NCBI RefSeq assembly: GCF_963576615.1
Contig: NC_088715.1
Span: 60,857,802-60,921,801, forward strand
Length of the DNA stretch: 64,000 nucleotides
Reading direction: 5' to 3'
DNA from: Watersipora subatra
Lineage: Eukaryota; Bryozoa; Gymnolaemata; Cheilostomatida; Watersiporidae
Translations under genes and position numbers: made by a program
In this document: one piece after another, positions 6,706 through 64,000 of the stretch
How positions within the stretch are numbered: position 1 is the stretch's first letter
How the letters are laid out: each line of letters starts with the position of its first letter
The notes under the pieces: generated by a model
Seen by the model: only the letters and a program-made list of their open reading frames with translations
What the model was told of the DNA's origin: nothing
Databases searched by the model: none

Positions 6706-6760
6706 TGATATATATATATATATATATTAATTCAAAAGAGAATATATATATATATATACA
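6706..6760. repeat. (TA)n microsatellite pair
   Basis: Two short (TA)n runs are separated by TTAATTCAAAAGAGAA. The sequence lies just 3' (minus-strand sense) of the retrotransposon fragment. Confidence 0.8.
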
Positions 6761-6826
6761 AAAAAAATTGTTTTCTCACCCCGGATACCCCGTATGGGTG
6801 GTAAATTCTGCTCTAACTCGGGTCTC

Positions 6827-7632
6827 CTACCAGAGACCTGGGAGTTTGAGCACTCGCCTCAAGATCTTAGCTGTTCCCAATAGCGCACTTTTCTGCAACT
6901 CACCTGAGTTGATTGTTGTTGGTATTTGGGCAAGCCACATTTTATGCGCCGGTGTTATTGCGTCCAGTGCCCCAATGACTACTGGGATTACAGTTGTTCT
7001 TACATTCCAGCATTTTTCAATTTCTTCTCCAAGAGGGAGATATTTCTCTACCTTTTCTTTTTCTTTGCTGGCTATATTGTAGTCATTGGGTACTGCTATA
7101 TCTATTATAGTAGCCCTTTTGTTCTCCTTGTCTACCACCACTATATCTGGTTGGTTTGCTAGGACATGCTTGTCAGTTCGGATGTAGAAGTCCCAGAGGA
7201 TCTTAGCGTGGTCATTTTCATTGACCTTACCAGGAGCTTCCCACCAGTGTTGTGGTTTATTAAGGCCATACTCATCACATAGACTTCTATACACAACACC
7301 TGCGACATGATTATGCCGCTCAGTGTATGCGTTTCCTGCTAGCTGCTTGCATCCACTGATGATGTGTTGGATGGTCTCAGGTGCATCTTTGCACAGTCTG
7401 CATCTAGGATCGTTTCTAGTGTGATAGATTTTCGTTTGGAGTTGCCTTGTTAGAAGCACTTGCTCCTGGGCTGCCATGATTAGCGACTCTGTATTGGCCG
7501 TTAGGTTTCCTTTGTTCAGCCACATATATGTCTGGTGAAGATCGCCAACCTTAGCTGTTTGTTGGTGGTAAGCACCATGAAGAGGTTTCATGTGCCAGTC
7601 AATTTCCTCATCATCAGGGCGTAAGTCCGTTG

Positions 7633-7633
<1 letters not shown>
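6827..7633 (-). mobile_element. 3' end of a non-LTR retrotransposon ORF (Cys-His finger plus nuclease-like domain), 5'-truncated
   Basis: A continuous minus-strand frame runs from the (TA)n tract at 7634 to a stop at 6827. From the first ATG (7591) it gives 254 residues. In order it shows a CCHC-type knuckle (CRLC at about residues 80-83, then HII and C), a spacer rich in Trp and acidic residues, and a segment with PDIVVVD, then IIDIAVPNDYN, then KEKEKVEKY. That layout is what is known for the restriction-like endonuclease region at the C terminus of R2/R4/NeSL-type ORFs: finger, then PD-(D/E)XK-like core. Assignment to that class is inference. The frame is open with no internal stops, so it inserted recently or came from a young family. 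The reverse transcriptase part is absent; the frame is cut off by the microsatellite. Confidence 0.7.

Positions 7634-7692
<59 letters not shown>
7634..7692. repeat. (AT)n microsatellite
   Basis: About 29 uninterrupted AT dinucleotides lie between the retrotransposon fragment and the first hammerhead ribozyme. Confidence 0.95.
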
Positions 7693-7693
<1 letters not shown>

Positions 7694-7694
<1 letters not shown>

Positions 7695-7750
7695 TCATGC
7701 TACAGACAGTACTGTTTCGGCTATTGAAGCCTCATCAGTGCAGCTCAGAG
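7694..7750 (-). ncRNA. Type I hammerhead self-cleaving ribozyme, copy 1
   Basis: On the minus strand all core elements are present in order. CUGAUGA is at 7738-7732. Stem II (GGCU/AGCC with loop UCAAU) is at 7731-7719. GAAA is at 7718-7715. Stem III (CAG, 2-nt loop UA, CUG) is at 7714-7707. The UC cleavage dinucleotide is at 7706-7705. Stem I pairs GCUGCA (7744-7739) with UGUAGC (7704-7699), then an internal loop, then CUC/GAG. Predicted cleavage is between 7705 and 7704. A 3-bp stem III is what is known for hammerheads of animal retrozymes and Penelope-like elements, which work best as tandem dimers. No substitution is seen in the catalytic core. Confidence 0.88.
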
Positions 7751-7952
7751 CTTAGGCAAGGGACACAAATCCCATTACCAATGAGAGTTGACTTCCTGCC
7801 ATGAAACAACTAGGTTGCCTCACAGACTTTAAGAAAGTCAATGTGCTGGCACCAGAGTACTCAAATCACAAAAGTGATGAGCTTTGCACAAAGGCTAATA
7901 GTGCCGCACCTCTCACAGAGTGCTCAACCAAACCGAAGTGAGGGAGCATATA

Positions 7953-8009
7953 CTCATGCTACAGACAGTACTGTTTCGGCTATTGAAGCCTCATCAGTGC
8001 AGCTCAGAG
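7953..8009 (-). ncRNA. Type I hammerhead self-cleaving ribozyme, copy 2
   Basis: The ribozyme region is base-for-base identical to copy 1, shifted by 259. CUGAUGA is at 7997-7991, stem II at 7990-7978, GAAA at 7977-7974, stem III at 7973-7966 and the cleavage dinucleotide UC at 7965-7964. Stem I is conserved, including its internal loop. Confidence 0.88.
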
Positions 8010-8102
8010 CTTAGGCAAGGGACACAAATTCCATTACCAATGAGAGTTGAGTTTCTGCCTATATATATATACATTTGAAAAATTATTGCGAAAAAAGTAA
8101 AC

Positions 8103-44099: not shown

Positions 44100-45300
44100 A
44101 ACTCATGCATTTTGACAGGGAAAATAAGATCTTTCACCCAAATCAACATGGCTTGCCCAAAAACCATAGGTGCGAAAAACAGCCGATTGAACTGGTGTCT
44201 GATATTCCGTACAATTTAGACAATGGTCTGAAGACAGATGCACGTGTGCTAGGTTTCAGCAAGGCCTTTGATAAGGTCAACCACAACAAACTGTTGCCAA
44301 AACTGGCCCAATATGGGGTTAGTCACCAGGTCATTTTTTGGGTTCCGGACTGCCTGAGCGATTGCACAGAGAGCGGTTGTGGAGGGGGAGGAGTCTGCTG
44401 AGGCTGCAGTAACATCTGATGTGGCTCAAGGCTCTGTGATCGGCCTAACGCTCTTCCTATATTACATCAATGATTTGCTGGACAGCCCGAGCTCGCAATG
44501 CAGGCTGTTTGCTGATGACACCATTGTGTACAACACCTCCAACAATGTTTCATCTCTGCAGGCCGACTTAGACAGACTGGGAGAGTGGGAAAGGCAATGG
44601 GATATGGAATTTCATCCTGATAAATGCCAGCTCACCACCTTCTCCCGGAAGAGAGTTCCCACTGATAATCAGTCTACCTGCACAACACCACTATACCCAG
44701 AGCTGAAAGCATCAAATACCTTGGTGTGACAGTCGACCATAAAATTCAGTGGCAGTCCCATACCAATGGCACCACCAGCAAAGCCAACACCACCTTGGGT
44801 TTTATCAGCTGCAACATCCTCACAACATCAGAAGAGGTTAAAGTGACTGCATACAAACAGTTAGTGCCTCCTTTGCTGGATTATGCCTTGGCATCTTGAG
44901 ATTCTGCACCAGACAGTACCTCTGACAAACTGGAGGCTGTGCAGAGGCGAGCGGTGCGTCTAATCTGTGGTGTCAGGAGAACGGATAGAAAGACCAGTAC
45001 CACCAGTCTCCTCCAGTGGCTGCAGCTGCTACCACTATCTAAACGTTGATCTGAGAAACGGCTTAAGATCTTTAGTCAATATCACCACTCAAACTCGACA
45101 GTGCTTGATCGATACATCAAGCGTTCCAATTTCTGCTCATCGTGTAGATATTTGCACCAGTACTTCATACCACAGTCAAACACGCTACACCATCAGCGCT
45201 CATTCTTTTTTTGTACAGCAAGAGCATGGAACTTACTGCCGTCCAATAGCAATCTTTTGGTGCCGCCTAACACCTAGTTTGCACGTATTGTACTATAACT
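44100..45300 (+). pseudogene. Decayed CR1/Jockey-type reverse transcriptase
   Basis: Fragments of one reverse transcriptase are read in order across several frames. Near 44255 is FSKAFDKVNHNKLLPKL. Near 44415 is a degenerate SGVPQGSVIGP block (here AQGSVIGLTLFLYYIND), and near 44506 the catalytic FADD box (LFADDTIVYN). After that come LGEWERQWDMEFHPDKCQ, IKYLGVTVDHKIQWQSH and EAVQRRAVRLICG, and finally an ARAWNLLPS-like C terminus near 45225. There is a frameshift near 44375, another near 44725, an in-frame TGA where WDSAP is expected near 44898, and further breaks after 45040. The 5' half (endonuclease) is absent. The motif order is that of the LINE clade with apurinic endonucleases; the exact clade is inferred. 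Confidence 0.8.
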
Positions 45301-45887: not shown

Positions 45888-48800
45888 ATGATAATGGACG
45901 ACAAACGTATCGTTATGGGTACTTTACAGGGCCGCACAGGGCGTATAGTTAGTGTCACTGCTGGGGATTCAGTACCTGAAGGTGCAATTCCTATTAATAG
46001 AACTATCGTTGGAGACATGAAGAAGATGTTATTAAAATCAAAACCTCCGTCAGAAATGTGAGTTTTTGTATCTGTAATACTAACGACCAGGAATGCAATA
46101 CTTCATATGCCACATGTGCTGCTAACAATCTTATTGTTTATAGCTTTTTTGCTTTAACACTTAGGGCAATTTTCTAAACGCTCGCTTGCACAATAAAAAG
46201 CTGACTTTGATTTTTTCTAATATAAATTGGCAGTAGTTATGGTTATCGATTCTTCAACGCTTAATAAACTTAGTTGCTAGCTACACCTTTTATTTTATGG
46301 ACCTTATTTATGTTTCAATAAAATACTGCAATCATTAACGGAGCAGAAAGCAATATTTTACATCCACTTTATTGAAAGTTTCATGAGAAACTATCCTTAT
46401 CACTCTGACACAAAGAGATGCACAGAGACAATAAATATGATAAATAATTGTATCAAAATTTTGTTAAAATGAAAAAAGTAACATACGGATCACCTCTATA
46501 AGCCTGTACAGAACAGAATTAGTAAATGTGTAGCATAAAAATGCTAAGCATAGCTATGTTTTCTATGACTCTGCTACATCATCCTTGAAGTTCTTACAAT
46601 CAACATGCACTCTTGCGCTCCTCATCTTAACTTGTTGATTTTGTTTCAGCCGAAACATTTATTTGGCTTATGCTCACTACACTATGCTAAGGTTAAACAC
46701 TAGCTTGTTGTTCCTGCTAGAATGGTGATTGGTGAATGGTATCTTTGGAGCGACTTAGTCCCTCAAATTGTCTCACTTCTCTGATTAAGCTAACAGTGTA
46801 TTTCTGTTTTTATCTTTCAGATGGCCGACATACTCACAGTATATTATTGCTGGCAGTAACTACATTTCTGCTGTCGTCTTAACCTATAACCTTAGACGCA
46901 AGTTAAAGATATTTCACGCAGCTCGAGCACTCTCCTACGTTTTTGCACCTATTGGGCCTTCTCTGCTTGCAGGCGTTATTCATGAATTGACTATTATGAA
47001 AAGTATATATAACGGTAAGTCGACATTATGTAACACCTATAATGGCAGTGTAATATATCTAAATAAGGATATGTTAACATTATGTGTCATGTTATGTAAC
47101 ACTTATAATGATACTTACTATGCATACAATGGTAGGTTAAACTCTTAGAATGGTGACACACCATTGGAAAATCATTTCTTATGACAGGTTGCCATTTAAG
47201 ATGCATTTATAAGAACAAGTTGCAGTTCTAAAATGCATATCACAATGAATGCTGCATTGCTAGCAGTAGAAAAACCAAATTCACACCTCCATTCATTAGG
47301 AGTGTGTTACATTATCCAAGTGAATGATATGTGTGTTACTGATGCAAAAGACTTTATAACATCATGATATAACACCTTAACCAATTTATTGTCAGGCAAG
47401 CAAAACAACTAATCTTTCAAAATGGTGTGAATTATGTATTTCAGTCATCAAAAATGTTTGATGTAATTCAGCTGAAAACAATCTTCATATTGTCATAACT
47501 ACTACTAAACTTCTCTAGAAACACTTTTATAAAATTGTTAGGAGTTTAATCCTGAATAATTGTGTACTGGATTTCTAGCAAGTTGTTTATAAAGGTAGCA
47601 ATAGCTGCTAGGAAGCTAGTGTATGCGTTCAATTAAGTAACGTTATGAAGCATGCGGAATCTGAAATGAAAAATCTACATTTTTTGAATTCTGTCTCATT
47701 TTGTCTTATGTTTGAACGAGTGTGAAAGAGAAATTCTCACATTGTTTTTACTAAATAGCTGAGACATTTTACATCGAAAGATTTGTCACAGACCCAAACA
47801 CACTGCTATACTTGCGTTTGAGGTTTTAAAAAGAAAAAAATATAACTTTATGACTAACGTCAATGTAGCCTGAGTTCTACATGACTCCTCTGTACACAGC
47901 TGCGCTACTTGAACTTGAAAGTTTAAGTTCAGATAACTCCATCTTTGGAAAAAAATAGTATTGCTGCTGATTTGGTTGTATTAGGTGTATGAGCGGCCAA
48001 GGAAATATTTGAGTCATGAAGCGTCATCAAGTCATACAGATGGTTCTTATGGAATCTTACTTGAGTGTAGCTTGGTACCTTTCTTTTAAAACTGAAAAGT
48101 TACGGTACACTTTGACATTCACATCAATTTATCGCATTTTTTATGTGTAGGGTGCCGTAGGGTAGAGTGTCGTAGGGTGCTGTAAGGTAGGGTGTCTGGG
48201 GAGCCATAGGGTAGGGTGCCGCACGGCAGGGTGCCGAAAGGTAGGGTGCTGTAGGGTAGAGTGCCATAGGGTAGGGTGCTATAGGTTAGAGTGACATAGG
48301 GCAGGGTGCTATAAAGTAGGGTGCCGTAAGGTAGGGTGCCGTAAGGTAGGGTGCCGTAAGGTAGGGTGCCGTAAGGTAGGGTGCCGAAAGGTAGGGTACC
48401 ATAAGGTGCTATAGGGTAGGATGACGTAGCGTAGGATGCCGTAGGGTAGGGTGTCGTTTCCAAACCTTTATCACCACGAAATGCACTTTTGAATGTTACA
48501 CTAACTTATTGGACTTTTAATGTGTAAAACGAACTGGTTTTGGTCTTTCATTAAAGTTTTGCATCAAATTTCAATCCAAACGCGTAGATATTTTTCTATC
48601 ATTTGAGGTTTTATCTGTTGTTTTAGGCGATATGACTGCTAGAATGTTTCACGGTTAAAATCAACAAAACTTGATCATGGTTAAATTAATCAGAAGAAAA
48701 AGATGTTCTCAGACTTTACCAAAAATGACGTCAATAATTGCGGATATTGTTTATAAGTGATAAATATTTGGTCTCATCGGCGTCAAGTACTCATATGTTT

Positions 48801-51800
48801 ACACAGCATTTAGAGAGAAACAATGGGACAAATTCTAACTAAATTGTCTTTATATCATTTGAAACGTCTATAGCAATATATCTGAGGCTAAAGTTGAACT
48901 TTTTTCAAACAATCATGAACAAATGCAAAAAGACATGTCAATAGAGGCACGTACCAATGCGATAGCCGATGCCATAACAAAAGGGACAAAGAGGAGGTAC
49001 GACTATGGGTGTCACTTTCGAAGAATTCTTTTTCTTCTGATCATTTTAACTGCAATCAATTTTAATCTTGAGACATTCTTGTAGTAAGATTACCAAAAAC
49101 AACAAACAAAATCTCAAATGATAGAAAAATGTCTTCTCTTTTTGATAAAATCTTTTAAAATCTGACATGACTAGCCCCTAATTGCATTTTATCTATTTAT
49201 CTGACATGACTAGCCCCTAATTGCATCTTATCTATTTATCTGACATGACTAGCCCCTAATTGCATCTTATCTATTTATCTGACATGACTAGCCCCTAATT
49301 GCATCTTATCTATTTATCTGACATGACTAGCCCCTAATTGCATCTTATCTATTTATCTGACATGACTAGCCCCTAATTGCATCTTATCTATTTATCTGAC
49401 ATGACTAGCCCCTAATTGCATCTTATCTATTTATCTGACATGACTAGCCCCTAATTGCATCTTATCTATTTATCTGACATGACTAGCCCCTAATTGCATT
49501 TTATCTATTTATCTGACATGACTAGCCCCTAATTGCATCTTATCTATTTATCTGACATGACTAGCCCCTAATTGCATCTTATCTATTTATCTGACATGAC
49601 TAGCCCCTAATTGCATCTTATCTATTTATCTGACATGACTAGCCCCTAATTGCATCTTATCTATTTATCTGACATGACTAGCCCCTAATTGCATCTTATC
49701 TATTTATCTGACATGACTAGCCCCTAATTGCATCTTATCTATTTATCTGACATGACTAGCCCCTAATTGCATCTTATCTATTTATCTGACATGACTAGCC
49801 CCTAATTGCATCTTATCTATTTATCTGACATGACTAGCCCCTAATTGCATCTTATCTATTTATCTGACATGACTAGCCCCTAATTGCATTTTATCTATTT
49901 ATCTGACATGACTAGCCCCTAATTGCATCTTATCTATTTATCTGACATGACTAGCCCCTAATTGCATCTTATCTATTTATCTGACATGACTAGCCCCTAA
50001 TTGCATCTTATCTATTTATCTGACATGACTAGCCCCTAATTGCATTTTATCTATTTCGTTTTGTGGCTATATAAGGTATTAGTTGCTGCGCGCTGGAGTC
50101 TACTGTTTGAAACTAAGCTTTGCTTGATCTATCACATAATCTATCACGATATGTGACTACTTCACTGTATACATGTCTTCTTTTTACAGAAGAGGATCCA
50201 TCTTGCCCTGTCTGTTTACCTCTACGGGCTGCCTGCCTCAACCTGGCCGCTGGTTGGGCTGTTCCAACTGCTATAAGCTTACTTACTACGACACACGTCG
50301 CCAGGCAGACCTACAGTTATCCTGTCCCCACTCTCACTGATTATCGCGCTTTATCTAAGGTAAAAACTGCACACTTTAAAATGAACTTACCCAAAATTGT
50401 AGTAGATTTTATCAGCCAGTATCGATATTCTATTATTTGCAATTTCTTTATGTTTGAGGTGATCTGGTTGCCAGAATGTTTCAAGATTAAAATCGATTAT
50501 ATTTGATCACGATTAAAAAGCTCAGATCAGTTAAAACTGTGATCATGACATCTATACTTGCAAAGAGACCGACAGAATAGATACACGTGATGCTGCAACT
50601 TGAGCGGAATAGCCGATATTAACTATAGCAATGATAACAACTAGTGACGTCATTTTGCACATATATCTTTTTCTGTGCATTTTAATTGCAATCAAGTTTT
50701 AAGATGTTTCAATATTAACATTGATAAAACTTGATCGTGGTTGAAACGTTGTAGTTTTTGTAAGTTCATCTTTAATGGAAGCAAGAAGCATATCGCATCA
50801 TTTGCATTGTATTCTTTATTGTTCCTGGTGTAATATACAAGTCGCATGTGATGTTTCTTACAGTTCACATTGAGCGTGTTTGTGATAAGCGGAAAAATGA
50901 CTTTTGGTGCACATAGTTAATTAATTGACACATAAATATGATTATTTACTTTTTATTATATTATAAATGCTGTGTAAGCGGGTTTTTTGTTTATTTCAGT
51001 TTTATAGGCGCCAGTTTTACAGTTTTCATACTATTTAGACAAGTACATATCTTGAAAAAAGACCGACTAAAAACTAAGCATCTCCTTTTGAAAGGGTTTA
51101 TTGTTAACTTACACAAAGGTTTGGAACTTCCCACCTTCTATAAATCTGTATCATCAGCTAACAGTCAGAGTTTTAGCGTATTATTAAGTGAGAGTTGATG
51201 TTTTAGAATTGTCTTCTCATTTAGTGAAGCACAGAATAATCGGTGTGAACAAATAGTCACCGTATTTTAATACGCCATATTAGTAAGCGGGCTTGTTTAA
51301 TTGCTATTGGCTCTTGCTTCATCTGTATAAAAACTGCTATTCAATTGTTTGCACAAGTTAGGCTGGGAAATGTGAGATTTTTGGATGTTTGAGGGCAGGC
51401 CTTTCTCTAGAAATCCCTTGCACCTTAATCAAACGCAAACAGCAAATGCTCATATTTTAGGCAGACTATTTAAAATCAACTCCATATAGATGGGTCAGAC
51501 AACTTTCAATTGCTATATATAACCTCTCGCTAATTTTGGTCTGAAGGTTTGCTGGTGACAGACAAACTAGTCGGGTCATTGCAATGCTTTGTAAGTGTGA
51601 AAGAATGTTAGAAAACATGAAACTAAAGTCTACCAATATTTTTATACTTTATATTTTTATGTTTGATCAGCTTAAATAAAAGGCAATGCATCTCATAAAA
51701 CATGAAGCTTTGAAATTTGTTGAGTTATGGTTAACATTACCTCTTACTTTATTTTGTGGGTAACGCTTGCATATACAAGTGTTGATGCTCTAATGTTTGG

Positions 51801-58800: not shown

Positions 58801-61800
58801 TGGCTGAATGACACTTCAGTTTAGGCTGACCTTAACAGCCAATTATTTTTGTAATTCTTTGTAAGAGTACTGGTGGGGGAAGTGCTCGGCACAAAGTACA
58901 GATCTATTTTGAGAACTCTAAAATAGCTAGACAACCTCACTTGAAATGTGAATAGAAATGCATTTTGCTTCCGCCATTCACTCTTTGAACATGTTCTGAT
59001 TTGCCAGCCTTCGTAGAAATGCGCTGACACAAAGAGAACTACTTGATCACAATAAATTCACATTCTATAATAATCAACCTACTGGGGTAATTGCCAGATA
59101 CCGCTTAAAACTCAAACAGAGAATGCAAGGCTGTGAAGTTTAGATGAGGTTCTCTTTTCTGGCGCCACTGTCTATTCTATAGCTTAGATTTATAAACACC
59201 CATTCAAAGCATACATATCACTATTATAACTGTGCTAACCAATTTCGCAACAACAATATTTAATATAAATTTCTTTAAGAGCTACAGACTGTATCCTGAA
59301 GGCTAGAGATAGAAATATGGTGACACACCTGAGAATTATTGGTAATAGTGGTGGATAGTTGAGCCTTTAACCAATCATCTCCCTTCTCTCCAGACTGTTG
59401 CCATAGCAACTGAATGGCACCTAGAGGTGGTTGCACGTAGACAGATAGTTTGTCTACAGTTGCTCCTTTCATGTGATAGTAGAACGTTATGCACACCCTA
59501 CCTGCAATACCCCAATAAAGGCTATAGATAAATTAATCTTTAAAGCAGGCGACTAGCCAAGATAAAGAAGACTCGCTTACTCATAGAGTTTGCAGCCAGG
59601 GTTAGATACACTAAGTTAAGTTTTATGTTTTTGGTGAAAAGCTAAATTTTGGAATTAGGTGCGCATTGTAGTGGCCTGCTTGCTTAGTGTAGGGTGTTAG
59701 AACGTTAAAGATATCCATGTAAAGATACCGAGAGTTAATGATGGAACTGAGGCAACTATTGAGAATATCTGTCAATATAACACTGATTGTTATTGGACCA
59801 CTTGGTTTGGTTGAGAATTTGGGCGAGTGGACCACACTGAAGTTTAAGAAAAATTAGAAAGCCAAGGTATAGTTTGCTGCACTACTGGGATCAGCATAGA
59901 TGTTAAAGAAAATGATGGACATCTCAAGTTAGTTGCTCTAGCCCGAGGTCCAACAAATAAAATTAACAAGCAGAACAGCAGCTGTACAAAATGACAATAA
60001 TCTTTGCTATAATAAGAACCAGGTCCGTCCTTCCATCTGTTTATTCCAACTCATGACATTCACCTAGTTAGACCAACACTCTAATATCTGCACCAATAAG
60101 TCACCTTCAAGCATTTCTGAACGATCGTGCAGCTGCTTATTCTCTGTGGTTTATCGACACACCTAATGCTCTCTCGCGACAAACTAGAATGGTAGAGAAC
60201 TAGATGTATAATAAGTTAGTAACCCATAAACAGAGTTCATCAAAATTTAAACCCTAAAGTTAAACAAGCTGTCCATGAATTTATCAGTTAGTTGATTTTG
60301 CTAAACCAGTCTTAGAGTCCTGATCCTGCAGAGCTAGTAGGAGAAAAATAGAAACCAAGAAACGGTTCAATGTGTTGTTTTTCTTGAATCAAATGGCTTA
60401 CCAGAGTATCGCAGCGCGTAAGTTGACATTTGGAATACGTTATTGTTTCTGTTGCTGTGTCTGTCGACACTGGCATCCATGTGAATGTAATAGGAACCAT
60501 TGGATGCACTGTTTGGACCAGTCCCAGTTGAGTGTGTCGGTCCCTGCAATATCATACAGGAGTACTAGTATATTTGCATTAGATACTAACTCTTTTCCTT
60601 AGCAAAGGTGATGATATGTTAGAAATATTATGTCTTTGTACTTTATTATAAACAACTTAGATTATTCTAAAGTTTGTACAGTTTTTTAACTACATTTTGT
60701 ATTTTGTGAACCTTTGAAAGATCATTGTTGATATTTTCATAAGTAACTCATACTCAATTTAATAAAATGGGTTGTTGAGCGATGACTTACTTCCTGGCAA
60801 CAATACCAGAGTGTTTGGAATGGCTCAAGTTGAGTCTCTTAGGCCTGTCCAGCCTAACCTTATTTTTAGACAATGCTGATCTACAGCATTGTCATGCTGT
60901 ACAGTATTACTGGCCATCGATGTTGGCTATTATTGATAGCCAGTAAAACTATATTTGGTAATATTGGCAACCCAAATACTTTTTACAAGGATTGAATGCT
61001 ATAATAACTATTTTTGCTTCAATTTTACTTCTAGCAAATATGTTAGGACAAATATGACAACTCTTTGTCATCTATTTACACGATTGTATGCTCAACTGCT
61101 TCATGGGCAGGCAAATCTAAAAATGGCAAAAATGGCTTACTTGAATCCTTTCCCACATCTGCGAAACCACAGGAAAATACAAATATTTTTCACAAATATC
61201 CTGTTCAAATCCACAGCTGACCAGCGGTCGTCTCCTCCGGCCTGTGCAACAAAACATTAACTCGATTAGAAACTCAGAATAATGCAAGAATCTATTAGTT
61301 TACAATAGTAAAAAAATAGTTAGTCCACAGAGTTATTTCATGAAGTTATTCTACTGCTTCAATGACAGTTAAGTAGTGCTATTTTAAGTGACTGCCATAA
61401 ACTGCCTTGGGCTAACAGAAGAGCAAATGACTTAGACAGCAGTTTTAATTTCCTCTGACTAACTTAATCAAAATATTTGCTTACATCTTTACAGAAAAAT
61501 AGAAAGAGACAACTTATAAAATGATGTTTTAACAAATTTGCTCTGAGTTGAAGTTTGAAAGCTCTCACACATTTATCAAACATAGCAATTGTCTATTATA
61601 GCAGTATTAAACACGAGACTTGATAAACCTAATTGCTCTTCATCAGGTGACTGGAATGACACTTCGTAAAGCTTTGGTCAGACATTTTTAGCCTGACAGT
61701 TTTTATACTACTGTCTGCCTCACTAAAGCAGTTTTAATTCGTAATGTGATTGGTGTAGGAATGTTTCCATACCTCTTTGTGAAGAGGAGCGGGATGAATT

Positions 61801-63732
61801 ATTAGGGGCTTGTCGTAGAGCTATGACTTGCTGTTCTGAAGTTGTTTCCTGAATGACATTCGATGCAGTTGTCTGCCTTTCCTGAGGTGATGAGAAAATT
61901 CGGTCCACAGGTGGCTGCTGGTGGCGGTTGACTGGTCTCTGTCGAAGCATATTATTAGCATTTGTTGTTATAACTGGAGGTATAGATTCCCTGGGACTTT
62001 GTGTAGCTTCACCAAATATAAATGGACGTCTCGAATTTGTAAAAGGAAATGGAACTGCCATTGTTCTAGTCTGTTGTTGTATTGGTTGCTGGGTGATTGA
62101 ATGCTGGGTAGTTGTGTGCAGTGTAGCTGGGTGCCGTATAGTTGTGCGGCGTGTAGCTGGGCGATGTGTAATTGGGCGACGCGTAGTTGGGCGTTGCGTA
62201 GTTGGGCGTTGCGTAGTTGGGCGTTGCGTATTTGGGCGTTGCGTAGTTGGGCGTTGTGTAGTTGGGCGCCGTGTAGTTGGGCGCTGTGTAGTTGGGCGTT
62301 GCGTAGTTGGGCGTTGTGTAGTTGGCTGTTGTGTAGTTGGGCGTTGCGTAGTTGGGCGTTGTGTAGCTGGGCGTCGCGTAGTTGGGTGTTGCGTAGTTGA
62401 ACGTTGCGTAGTTGAACGTTGCGTAGTTGGGCGTTGCGTAGTTGGGTGTTGGGTAGTTGGGCGTTGCGTAGTTGTGCGTTGTGTAGCTGGGCGCCGTGTA
62501 GTTGGGCGTTGCGTAGTTGGGTGTTGCGTAGTTGGGCGTTGGGTAGTTGGTCGTTGAGTAGTTGGGCGTCGTGTAGTTGGGCGTCGTGTAGTTGGGCGTC
62601 GCGTATTTGGGTGCTGTGTGGTTGAACGCATTGTAGTTGGACGTTGTCTAGTTAAATGTCCCATAAATACAAACCTTGTGACTGGAAACCGCGTGGTCTG
62701 ACGCTGCGTAGTTGAAGGTTGCTGAATAGTTGTGTGATGCACAGGAAGTGACCTTGAGCTCAAGGTTTGCTGCCTTGTTCTAAATGTTGTGTGTCTCGTT
62801 GTTGTCGGTATATTGGTAGAAGATGGTGGTAGGAGCATTCCTTCTGTGTTAGAATTGTCTGGGATACTTGCTATTGGTGGCAGTCGCATTGCATCAGAAT
62901 TGCATCTCCCTTTGCTAATCTGCATGCAAACTTACATATATTAAGAAAGTTATATTTTGTAAACAGCTGAACAATACTTATTATTAGCTAAATAACTGGA
63001 CAGTAAAATTTGTAGCTATGGTATTTTTTAGGAACAAAAACATTAAAACACTTTTTACTTCGATGATTTTTAGCCTCATTGCTATATTGAGTTTACCGAG
63101 CTTATTTTCACAGCACTAAGTTTGGTACTAGGGCTAGATTAGCCAAATTCTTTTGTATTTACATAAATGCCAAATTCTTTTCTATTTACGCAAATTTTGT
63201 TTAGTCAGACTTTCTACCATCAGAGTAAATCTAAATTCTTGTCCTTCATTTTTGTTCAATTGCAGACATTTCACTTTAACCAACTACAAAGAAGAAACTT
63301 TGGAAAAGCATAGAAGTATTTTGTAGCAGTAAATCTGCTGTTTTCTTATTCCCTGTAATTGTATTAAAATTGGGAGAGGAAAAAATTGCCACAAGCATAT
63401 TATGCAACAAATTCAAGCATAAAATTTCGCATTTAACCTAATTAAAAAATTGGAAAACAAAACAATTGTAATCGGTGCCATTTCACACACCTTCACATCA
63501 TCCACAGCAATATCTGAGAGATGCTTTTCGCCTACAGTTGCTTCAAAGATCAGACGACTCCTCCGACTGCGAGTTGTCATAGCTACGCTTTTATGTAGCC
63601 ATTCTGTAGATTGCTCTCCAGCGGCTGAGAAGTACTTGGTAGACCGTGATGCCTCCACAGATTCAAGAATAAGATTAAGGGTGCCAACACTTTCTCCGTA
63701 CATGTGATAGTAGAATGAGACACAAATACTGC
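52855..63732 (-). CDS. Multi-MAM, Thr-rich extracellular protein, 5' partial (ten exons visible)
   Basis: Minus-strand exons in transcription order are 63732-63491, 62919-61773, 61241-61141, 60543-60402, 59501-59329, 57733-57517, 56570-56487, 54837-54721, 54535-54357 and 52947-52855 (TAA). All phases agree, giving 830 residues in the window. Layout: second half of MAM1, a ~380-residue Thr/Pro/Gln/Arg repeat region, complete MAM2, a basic linker, complete MAM3, stop. MAM domains are known extracellular adhesion and interaction modules with four conserved cysteines, all visible in MAM2 and MAM3. No transmembrane segment follows MAM3, so this end is secreted; the signal peptide would lie upstream of the window. 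Weak points are the GTTCGT donor after exon 8 and the choice of a GTGAGT donor inside the frame of exon 6. Confidence 0.85.
53080..53490. repeat. Dispersed repeat shared with 40376-40800 (intronic)
   Basis: Best preserved between 53350 and 53450 (GGCACATTTAGAAG, AATTAAAAAATAAG, AAAGCTTTTAAAAA, AATATTAATTAATAATG). It lies in the last intron of the MAM gene. Confidence 0.45.
53610..54055. mobile_element. Foldback MITE (family F) in MAM gene intron
   Basis: Interior blocks (GATGTTTGAGGTGATCTGAC, AACTTGAACACAGTTGCTGA, AACAACTAATGATG) match the copies at 4845 and 50377. The right arm (ACAGAAGTTTTGTGTAAGTTCATTTGTAAC) is clear and the left arm is diverged. Confidence 0.6.
55905..55975. repeat. Duplicate of the MAM gene 3' flank
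   Basis: TTTGTTTGATGCGTTGACT, AGACAATC and GCAATGGTTTAGGGCT occur in order here and at 52786-52850, directly next to the MAM3 stop codon. Confidence 0.75.
57517..61241 (-). other. MAM domain 2 (five exons) and basic linker
   Basis: The exon at 61241 opens with RRRRPLVSCGFEQDICEKY, a possible furin-type basic site right before MAM2. Next come SNGSYYIHMDASVDRH and CITFYYHMKGATVDKLSV, then WLKAQLS, VVIEAIRGRSYQADIALDQL and KGTC. After the fourth Cys a very basic linker (SRTRSQQRKDRKKGMRDRMR) leads into a Gln/Asn-rich stretch. The frame remains open past the GTGAGT donor to a stop at 57476; unspliced, that would give a shorter isoform ending in MAM2. Confidence 0.85.
59995..60190 (-). repeat. 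SINE-like copy (family S1), reverse, intronic
   Basis: The minus strand carries a tRNA-like block (complement of CAACTCATGACATTCACC...GTTAGACCAACACTCTAATATC). The plus-strand left part reads ATAATAAGAACCAGGTCCGTCC. Shared features with 14875 include ACACTCTAATAACTGCACCAA-like sequence. Confidence 0.45.
61773..62919 (-). other. Thr/Pro/Gln/Arg repeat exon (mucin-like)
   Basis: One 1147-bp exon encodes ISKGRC (the fourth MAM1 cysteine), about 80 residues of Ser/Thr/Pro-rich sequence, then about 30 tandem five-residue repeats of PTTQR/PTTRR, and a Gln/Asn/Ser-rich end. At DNA level the 15-bp unit (plus strand GCGTAGTTGGGCGTT) is the repeat. Plus-strand frames here (CVVGR / SWALR repeats) are shadows. 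Alternating Thr pairs with Arg gives a positively charged mucin, unlike the pure Thr mucin of the gene at 19445. Confidence 0.85.
63491..63732 (-). other. MAM domain 1, C-terminal half
   Basis: The exon begins in phase 1 with SICVSFYYHMYGESVGTLNL and runs through STEWLHKSVAM, SRLIFEATVGEK and SDIAVDDVK. The donor GTGTGT joins to ISKGRC in the next exon. Unlike MAM2 and MAM3, there is no intron before the LIFEA strand, so two exons are fused here. The first half of MAM1 lies beyond the window. Confidence 0.85.
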
Positions 63733-64000
63733 CTGAAATATTAATAACGATAGCTTTTTATTGTTGTACCACACGTGATAAACTTCACATGGGGACCATC
63801 TAAGTTAAAGTTTGGTTAAGCTCTCTAAGGTAAGTATAAAACAACTTTTTTAGAAATAAAAATAAACAGTAGCAAGTTTTTGAGCTCTCTCTTGTTTTCA
63901 GCAGACATGATTTTCCCAACAAACTATAATTGCTGGCAACAATGCTAAATTATTTCAGGAAATTAAAATTAAAAAATTTTTTTTTAACTGAGTTGTAAAA
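63733..64000. other. Intron of the MAM gene running off the window
   Basis: No further exon is seen. Polypyrimidine on the minus strand precedes the exon at 63732 (ATTAATATTTCAG). Confidence 0.5.

What the first reader, a model, noticed from the sequence alone, without database searches (positions are those of the whole stretch)
7691..8059. Tandem hammerhead ribozymes 259 nt apart: an animal retrozyme or ribozyme-bearing repeat
Two identical type I hammerheads with complete cores (CUGAUGA, stem II, GAAA, 3-bp stem III, UC) and well-paired stem I lie on the same strand in a 110-bp direct repeat. The exact 259-nt spacing means that self-cleavage of a minus-strand transcript would release a unit-length RNA that could circularise. 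Hammerheads of this form are known from animal retrozymes and Penelope-like elements.
Basis: partly seen in the sequence, partly recalled or inferred. Interest (0 to 1): 0.92.

Follow-up and report, generated by a model that had tools for sequence, protein, structure and literature searches.

The report
Bryozoan retrozyme with twin hammerhead ribozymes
A bryozoan genome carries a tiny mobile element whose RNA should cut itself out as a 259-letter circle, and the way its copies end in TA repeats suggests how such circles get pasted back into DNA.

Summary
Two identical, complete type I hammerheads lie 259 nt apart on the minus strand (cuts 7705/7704 and 7964/7963), in a 371-nt insert inside a (TA)n tract. 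No match reaches Rfam's gathering score, but the same hammerhead (up to 3 mismatches) occurs 2,111 times in the host genome (reversed control 0). The host is very probably Watersipora subatra (Bryozoa). This is a metazoan non-LTR retrozyme, the class of Cervera & de la Pena 2020.

New here is the integration pattern. In 59 of 61 genomic copies the 3' end falls at unit positions 13-17 (just behind UAUAU, about 16 nt past the cleavage site), while 5' ends lie round the circle and lengths run from 0.25 to 15 units. 29 of 31 multi-unit arrays carry one haplotype. TA runs flank most copies. This fits target-primed reverse transcription of a circle, primed by (TA)n. The abundant R2-like LINE next to this insert also ends in TA tracts and clusters with the retrozymes. 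The only match to Pfam GIY-YIG in the genome is SLX1, which weakens the proposed Penelope-like partner here. Covarying pairs support a folded RNA. Cleavage, circles and the partner enzyme are untested.

The parts
7689..8059 (-). retrozyme insertion, 371 nt = 1.43 units; RNA 5' end at 8059, 3' end at 7689 (unit position 16)
   Evidence: alignment to the unit concatemer, (L001); repeat family D3
7705..7963 (-). the 259-nt unit between the two predicted cleavage sites; would be released and circularised
   Evidence: circular fold -88.1 kcal/mol, z -3.56 against 200 shuffles
7953..8009 (-). first hammerhead in the RNA (type I), cut between 7964 and 7963
   Evidence: HH9 21.7 bits, below the cut-off of 52
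7694..7750 (-). second hammerhead in the RNA (type I), cut between 7705 and 7704
   Evidence: HH9 23.5 bits, below the cut-off of 52
7689..7693 (-). UAUAU, unit positions 12-16: fixed 3' junction and inferred priming site
   Evidence: 3' end at unit positions 13-17 in 59 of 61 copies
7634..7693 (.). (TA)30 tract at the RNA 3' side of the insert (target site and/or tail; its last bases overlap the element end)
8060..8071 (.). TATATATATATA at the RNA 5' side of the insert, the other side of the target
6760..7633 (-). 5'-truncated copy of an R2-like LINE bordered by TA tracts on both sides; candidate partner family

Best explanation
This is one copy of a metazoan non-LTR retrozyme family of a bryozoan (Watersipora subatra). 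A transcript of the minus strand cuts itself at both hammerheads and releases a 259-nt RNA, which a host ligase closes into a circle (inferred from relatives). A (TA)n microsatellite nicked by a retrotransposon enzyme anneals to UAUAU at unit positions 12-16. Reverse transcription starts there and runs round the circle for a fraction of a turn up to many turns, which leaves a fixed 3' end and a variable 5' end. The enzyme most likely comes from the R2-like LINE that shares the TA target. Shown: family, fixed 3' junction, variable 5' ends, TA flanks, one haplotype in nearly every array, RNA covariation. Inferred: transcription, cleavage, circle, priming, enzyme.
For: Family: 113 matches in the own genome, with 259-nt periodicity (40 of 1,426 candidates scored); 1,062 + 1,049 hammerhead 34-mers with up to 3 mismatches, reversed control 0. 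Junctions: 3' end at unit positions 12-17 in 39 of 41 copies from the top-scoring arrays and in 20 of 20 copies from 20 of the first 21 exact-hammerhead loci of C1; 5' ends nearly dispersed (resultant length 0.22 and 0.30, against 0.95 and 1.00 for 3' ends). TA run of 10 or more in the 60-nt 3' flank in 39/41 and 18/20, in the 5' flank in 35/41 and 14/20, against 1.7% of 5,000 random 60-mers of the window. 60 of 61 copies cross the cleavage junction, so a cleaved linear monomer was not the template. 29 of 31 arrays with 2 or more full units carry one haplotype at 7 diagnostic sites. Hammerhead sites vary about five times less than the rest (0.0036 against 0.0195; 97 units; core intact in 91). 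Covariation: 24 double-change cells against 7.2 in shuffles, 0 of 500; two pairs changed on both sides in 11 of 40 sequences each. LINE: R2-like RT (best solved-structure relative an R2 protein, E 6.6e-31); TA run of 10 or more after the 3' end in 25 of 30 copies; 4 of 46 retrozyme loci on C1 within 500 nt of a LINE 3' end against 0.08 expected, 0 of 2,000 shifts; 11 of 38 retrozyme loci hold a piece of it, 3 of 30 LINE loci (one of them this window's) hold a retrozyme. GIY-YIG: 1 match at E <= 0.001, SLX1.
Against: No Rfam match at gathering score, and the hammerhead is not the computed optimum. Abutting repeats that would be target-site duplications are not above permuted pairs (17 of 41 against 15.3; 6 of 20 against 6.6), although TA flanks hide them; L044, with an imperfect TA flank, shows one of 9 nt. 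LINE and retrozyme show no sequence similarity above chance. Two exceptions for the 3' end: L005 (136, followed by a 44-nt piece ending at 16) and the second full-length copy in L026 (9). L005 and L024 mix haplotypes, and 14 of 65 variants that are polymorphic within an array also occur in 2 or more other arrays. The 10 core positions vary more (0.0062) than the hammerhead as a whole (0.0036). No covariation lies in the hammerhead stems themselves. 5' ends are not uniform.
Confidence: 0.8

Rival explanations
1. Linear, SINE-like spread: an uncut read-through transcript of an existing copy, with its genomic (TA)n tail, is reverse transcribed from the tail. The tail fixes the 3' end; no circle is needed.
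For: Most copies are followed by a TA run, and a transcript of such a copy would carry a (UA)n tail. Half of the 20 consecutively sampled copies are shorter than one unit.
Against: Copying alone could only keep or shorten arrays, yet arrays reach 15.03 units (later growth by unequal exchange is possible). 29 of 31 multi-unit arrays are one haplotype although several haplotypes are common, which asks for a homogenising step such as a circle. The hammerhead is conserved above the rest although cleavage would destroy this template.
Confidence: 0.13
2. The partner enzyme is a Penelope-like element, as proposed for other metazoan retrozymes, not the R2-like LINE.
For: Penelope-like elements carry hammerheads, cut AT-rich DNA and start reverse transcription internally (PMC11167929, passages seen). 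The authors of PMC7229834 name them as strong candidates.
Against: One match to Pfam GIY-YIG in the whole genome at E <= 0.001, all 16 candidates scored, and it is SLX1. The model may miss divergent Penelope endonucleases, its sensitivity for them was not tested here, and elements without that domain would not show.
Confidence: 0.2
3. Ordinary satellite DNA: tandem copies made by unequal exchange, with hammerheads as a passive remnant.
For: Tandem head-to-tail arrays; arrays of up to 15 units could have grown by exchange.
Against: Dispersed over 11 contigs, median length 0.97 unit in the consecutive sample, fixed 3' end and variable 5' end at TA tracts, conserved ribozyme, compensatory pairs.
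Confidence: 0.03

Closest known systems
Metazoan non-LTR retrozymes (Cervera & de la Pena 2020, PMC7229834)
   Same: type I hammerhead, 170-400 nt units, dimers to multimers, GC below 50%, no long reading frame, self-paired circular fold, many copies
   Different: found in Bryozoa; a fixed 3' junction at TA tracts and one haplotype in nearly every array are shown here; a candidate R2-like LINE partner is named
Plant LTR retrozymes (PMC4918200, listing only)
   Same: tandem hammerheads that release a circle
   Different: type III hammerheads, 600-800 nt circles, LTR, PBS and PPT, 4-bp duplications (as described in PMC7229834)
Penelope-like elements with hammerheads in pseudo-LTRs (PMC11167929, passages)
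   Same: hammerhead, tandem arrangement, AT-rich target, internal start of reverse transcription
   Different: encode RT and GIY-YIG; the unit here is non-coding and its hammerhead has a 3-bp helix III, unlike the minimal kind
RLE-type LINEs, many of which target repeats such as microsatellites (PMC4640811, passages)
   Same: the neighbouring R2-like LINE of this genome ends in TA tracts as the retrozyme does
   Different: autonomous, coding, 3' end CAATTTT before the TA tract

Membership tests
metazoan non-LTR retrozyme | type I hammerhead with core, short helix III and internal loop in helix I | tested here: met
   but below Rfam gathering score
metazoan non-LTR retrozyme | tandem units of about 170-400 nt, dimers to multimers | tested here: met
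   259 nt here; 0.25 to 15.03 units over 61 copies; 10 of the 20 consecutively sampled copies are shorter than one unit
metazoan non-LTR retrozyme | many dispersed copies in the genome | tested here: met
   2,111 hammerhead matches
metazoan non-LTR retrozyme | low GC (below 45% in the figure legend, below 50% in the text) and no coding region | tested here: met
   unit GC 46%, so below 50% but not below 45%; longest reading frame from ATG in the circle 27 aa on the RNA strand and 57 aa on the other
metazoan non-LTR retrozyme | no LTR, primer binding site or polypurine tract | not tested
   no dedicated search; copies end at a fixed 3' point and variable 5' points, which is unlike LTR elements
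metazoan non-LTR retrozyme | stable self-paired circular RNA fold | tested here: met
   z -3.56; covariation
metazoan non-LTR retrozyme | loop 1 - loop 2 tertiary contact | not tested
   loops are present (UGA/AU and UCAAU); contact not modelled
metazoan non-LTR retrozyme | self-cleavage and circular RNA in tissue | not testable with these tools
   no RNA data or bench
metazoan non-LTR retrozyme | target-site duplications, when present | tested here: inconclusive
   not above permuted flanks; TA tracts hide them
Penelope-like element | RT and GIY-YIG coding region flanked by pseudo-LTRs with minimal hammerheads | tested here: not met
   no coding region in the unit; the only Pfam GIY-YIG match found in the genome is SLX1

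The most novel reading that the evidence does not exclude
Animal retrozymes integrate by target-primed reverse transcription of a circular RNA at one fixed internal site, primed by the very microsatellite they insert into, with several rounds of rolling copying, using the machinery of an R2-like restriction-endonuclease LINE rather than a Penelope-like element.
Probability: 0.45. Interest if true: 0.78.

Novelty: new member of a known kind. Interest (0 to 1): 0.58.

Why it matters
Retrozymes were described as circular RNAs whose integration route is a model, and a 2020 review states that the metazoan repeats show no conserved motif that reveals the helper (PMC7761336, passages). Here the genomic scars offer one: fixed 3' junction, variable 5' end, TA target, one haplotype in nearly every array, and a LINE with the same target. 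That makes the helper question testable in vitro with one defined circle and one defined enzyme. It also adds Bryozoa to the hosts; a search of the held papers for bryozoa together with hammerhead ribozyme gave 0.

Tried and rejected
Exact hammerhead scans of the viral and prokaryote contig collections found nothing. tRNA search of the window: none. Target-site duplication test: not above permuted pairs. The first duplication script hung and was repeated with a fix. Isolated fold of the hammerhead: not informative, a competing fold wins. Penelope search via a second Pfam accession recalled from memory: not in the library. A control with the other LINE of the window (44.2-45.4 kb) and genome searches with Rfam hammerhead models did not complete because the machine was busy, so I do not know whether other LINE families of this genome sit in TA tracts as well. 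The 5' ends are not fully random: 13 of 61 lie at 4-16 and 15 of 61 at 66-82, more than uniform; the second cluster is not explained.

Full report
What is there. The minus strand of 7689-8059 carries 1.43 copies of a 259-nt unit, so that one hammerhead appears twice. Each has CUGAUGA, a 4-bp stem II, GAAA, a 3-bp stem III with the palindromic loop GUAC and the cleavage triplet GUC. Stem I has 6 bp, an internal loop and 3 more bp. The 3 differences between the two repeat copies lie outside the ribozymes. A descriptor found these 2 sites only, and none in 400 simulated windows. Rfam gives no match at gathering score and a weak HH9 match in permissive mode. The isolated hammerhead is not the lowest-energy fold. 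The case therefore rests on the genome, not on Rfam or folding energy.

Host. An eighth length differs: 75932528 against 75923518 for C3. The genome note reports 783.70 Mb and 11 chromosomes, the first five of 79.35, 77.13, 75.93, 67.13 and 66.62 Mb (PMC12902671, abstract in the listing and passages). G000 has 783,720,542 bases and the window lies on C8. I take the host as Watersipora subatra; the small C3 difference is unexplained.

The family. A search of the own genome with the insert gave 113 matches from the 40 of 1,426 candidates that were scored. The hammerhead 34-mer with up to 3 mismatches occurs 1,062 + 1,049 times, and its reversed control 0 times. I studied 61 copies. Forty-one, each of at least one unit, come from 38 loci of the top-scoring arrays (L001-L050 less 12 overlapping loci); two shorter pieces, in L005 and L026, were dropped, and both end at position 16. 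Two of the 22 further arrays listed were not fetched in that step; one was fetched later as L092. The other twenty copies come from 20 of the first 21 exact-hammerhead loci on C1; the one left out lies at 26.57 Mb. The first set is picked for likeness to this insert; the second only by an exact hammerhead.

Junctions. Numbering the unit from the cleavage site, the 3' end lies at 16 in 51 of 61 copies, at 13-15 or 17 in 8, at 9 in 1 and at 136 in 1. The last is L005, where a further piece then runs to 16. Because TA follows, the true end could be anywhere in positions 12-16. The 5' ends range from 4 to 256. In circular statistics the 3' ends have a resultant of 0.95 and 1.00 and the 5' ends 0.22 and 0.30; uniform data would give about 0.14 and 0.20. 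Lengths run from 0.25 to 15.03 units; the median of the consecutive sample is 0.97. 39 of 41 and 18 of 20 copies have a TA run of 10 or more in the 60 nt after the 3' end, and 35 of 41 and 14 of 20 before the 5' end; of 5,000 random 60-mers of the window, 1.7% do. This is the pattern of target-primed reverse transcription with 5' truncation. In 60 of 61 copies the element crosses the cleavage junction, so the template was not a cleaved linear monomer.

One circle per array. Of 31 arrays with 2 or more full units, 29 carry a single haplotype at 7 diagnostic sites; L005 and L024 do not. Of 65 variants that are polymorphic within an array, 14 also occur in 2 or more other arrays. Units of one locus differ at 2.03 positions on average, units of different loci at 6.93 (0 of 2,000 label shuffles as low; two arrays of one locus were pooled there). 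Copying one circle several times gives this directly. A linear source array that was itself homogeneous would also give it, so the circle is favoured but not proven.

RNA structure. Of 46 aligned units (40 distinct), 4 pairs of the structure show changes on both sides (6 of 500 shuffles reach this), in 24 cells against 7.2 in shuffles (0 of 500), and the covariation score exceeds all 500 shuffles and all 6 slid structures. Two pairs account for most of it, with 11 of 40 sequences each; relatedness can inflate such counts. The measure 'further pair types' was not above shuffles (486 of 500 at least as high). The structure was derived from the consensus of these units. Five of the 51 full-length copies considered gave no full unit and are not in the alignment. 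The hammerhead stems hardly vary and give no covariation. Hammerhead sites vary about five times less than the rest of the unit (0.0036 against 0.0195 over 97 units, several from one array and so not independent); the 10 core positions are at 0.0062, and the core is intact in 91 of 97.

The partner. The ORF at 6827-7630 on the minus strand is the end of a LINE. A longer open frame of the family (L061) has an RT whose best relative of solved structure is an R2 protein (E 6.6e-31) and a zinc motif below Pfam's cut-off. A PD...D motif like that of restriction-like endonucleases is seen by eye and named from recall. In 25 of 30 top-scoring copies, the window's own included, a TA run of 10 or more lies within 60 nt after the 3' end (sequences), and the copy in this window is bordered by TA tracts on both sides. 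The LINE 3' end occurs 1,161 + 1,199 times with up to 1 mismatch, reversed control 0. On C1, 4 of 46 exact-hammerhead loci lie within 500 nt of one of 91 exact LINE ends against 0.08 expected, and 8 of 46 within 5 kb against 0.53 (0 of 2,000 circular shifts reach either). A shared taste for TA tracts explains this; it does not prove a shared enzyme, and no other LINE family was examined as a control. Literature: LINEs with restriction-like endonuclease often target repeats such as microsatellites (PMC4640811, passages). The Penelope-like alternative is weakened by the single GIY-YIG match, SLX1, but Penelope endonucleases may escape that model and no reverse transcriptase census was made.

What is known. 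Metazoan non-LTR retrozymes were defined in 2020 (PMC7229834, parts 1-4 of 6 read), with the same ribozyme type, unit sizes, tandem form and circular RNAs. That paper proposes priming by target DNA or a small RNA and an unnamed helper, with Penelope-like elements as a strong candidate. A later review (PMC7761336, passages) says that no conserved motif reveals the helper. No held paper has both bryozoa and hammerhead ribozyme. In the rows listed by two searches that join retrozyme or hammerhead ribozyme with target-primed reverse transcription, TA repeats, microsatellite or SINE (15 of 426 and 12 of 13 papers), I saw no title or abstract start that describes this junction pattern; most of those papers were not opened.

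Verdict. A real retrozyme, a new member of a known kind, with junction evidence that turns its integration route into a testable model.

Noticed in passing
window 6760-7633 (minus): 5'-truncated copy of an abundant R2-like LINE bordered by TA tracts; three copies of the family lie about 5.46 kb apart in one orientation on contig C9 (L055-L057).
   Followed up: partly
L085, L086: Retrozyme and LINE share one TA tract: tail to tail in L085, and retrozyme directly behind the LINE tail in L086.
   Followed up: partly
61 retrozyme copies, 5' ends: 5' ends cluster at unit positions 4-16 (13 of 61) and 66-82 (15 of 61), more than uniform; perhaps a completed turn and a pause.
   Followed up: partly
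L032, 5' flank: The 5' flank carries an inverted piece of the unit next to the junction, as if the cDNA had folded back (by eye).
   Followed up: no
G000 contig C3: C3 is 75923518 bases here, while a Watersipora protein cluster names a contig of 75932528 bases; seven other contig lengths agree exactly.
   Followed up: no
window 49160-50056: 23 copies of a 39-bp tandem repeat, 99% alike.
   Followed up: no
window 61723-62931 (minus): 402-aa open frame with threonine-rich repeats of 5 residues (15-bp period), mucin-like.
   Followed up: no
window 48119-48505 (minus): 128-aa open frame with repeated PYGTL-like units of 15 bp.
   Followed up: no
window 44358-44729 (+): fragment of another LINE reverse transcriptase (RVT_1).
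   Followed up: no
window 63413-63757 (minus): MAM domain open frame.
   Followed up: no
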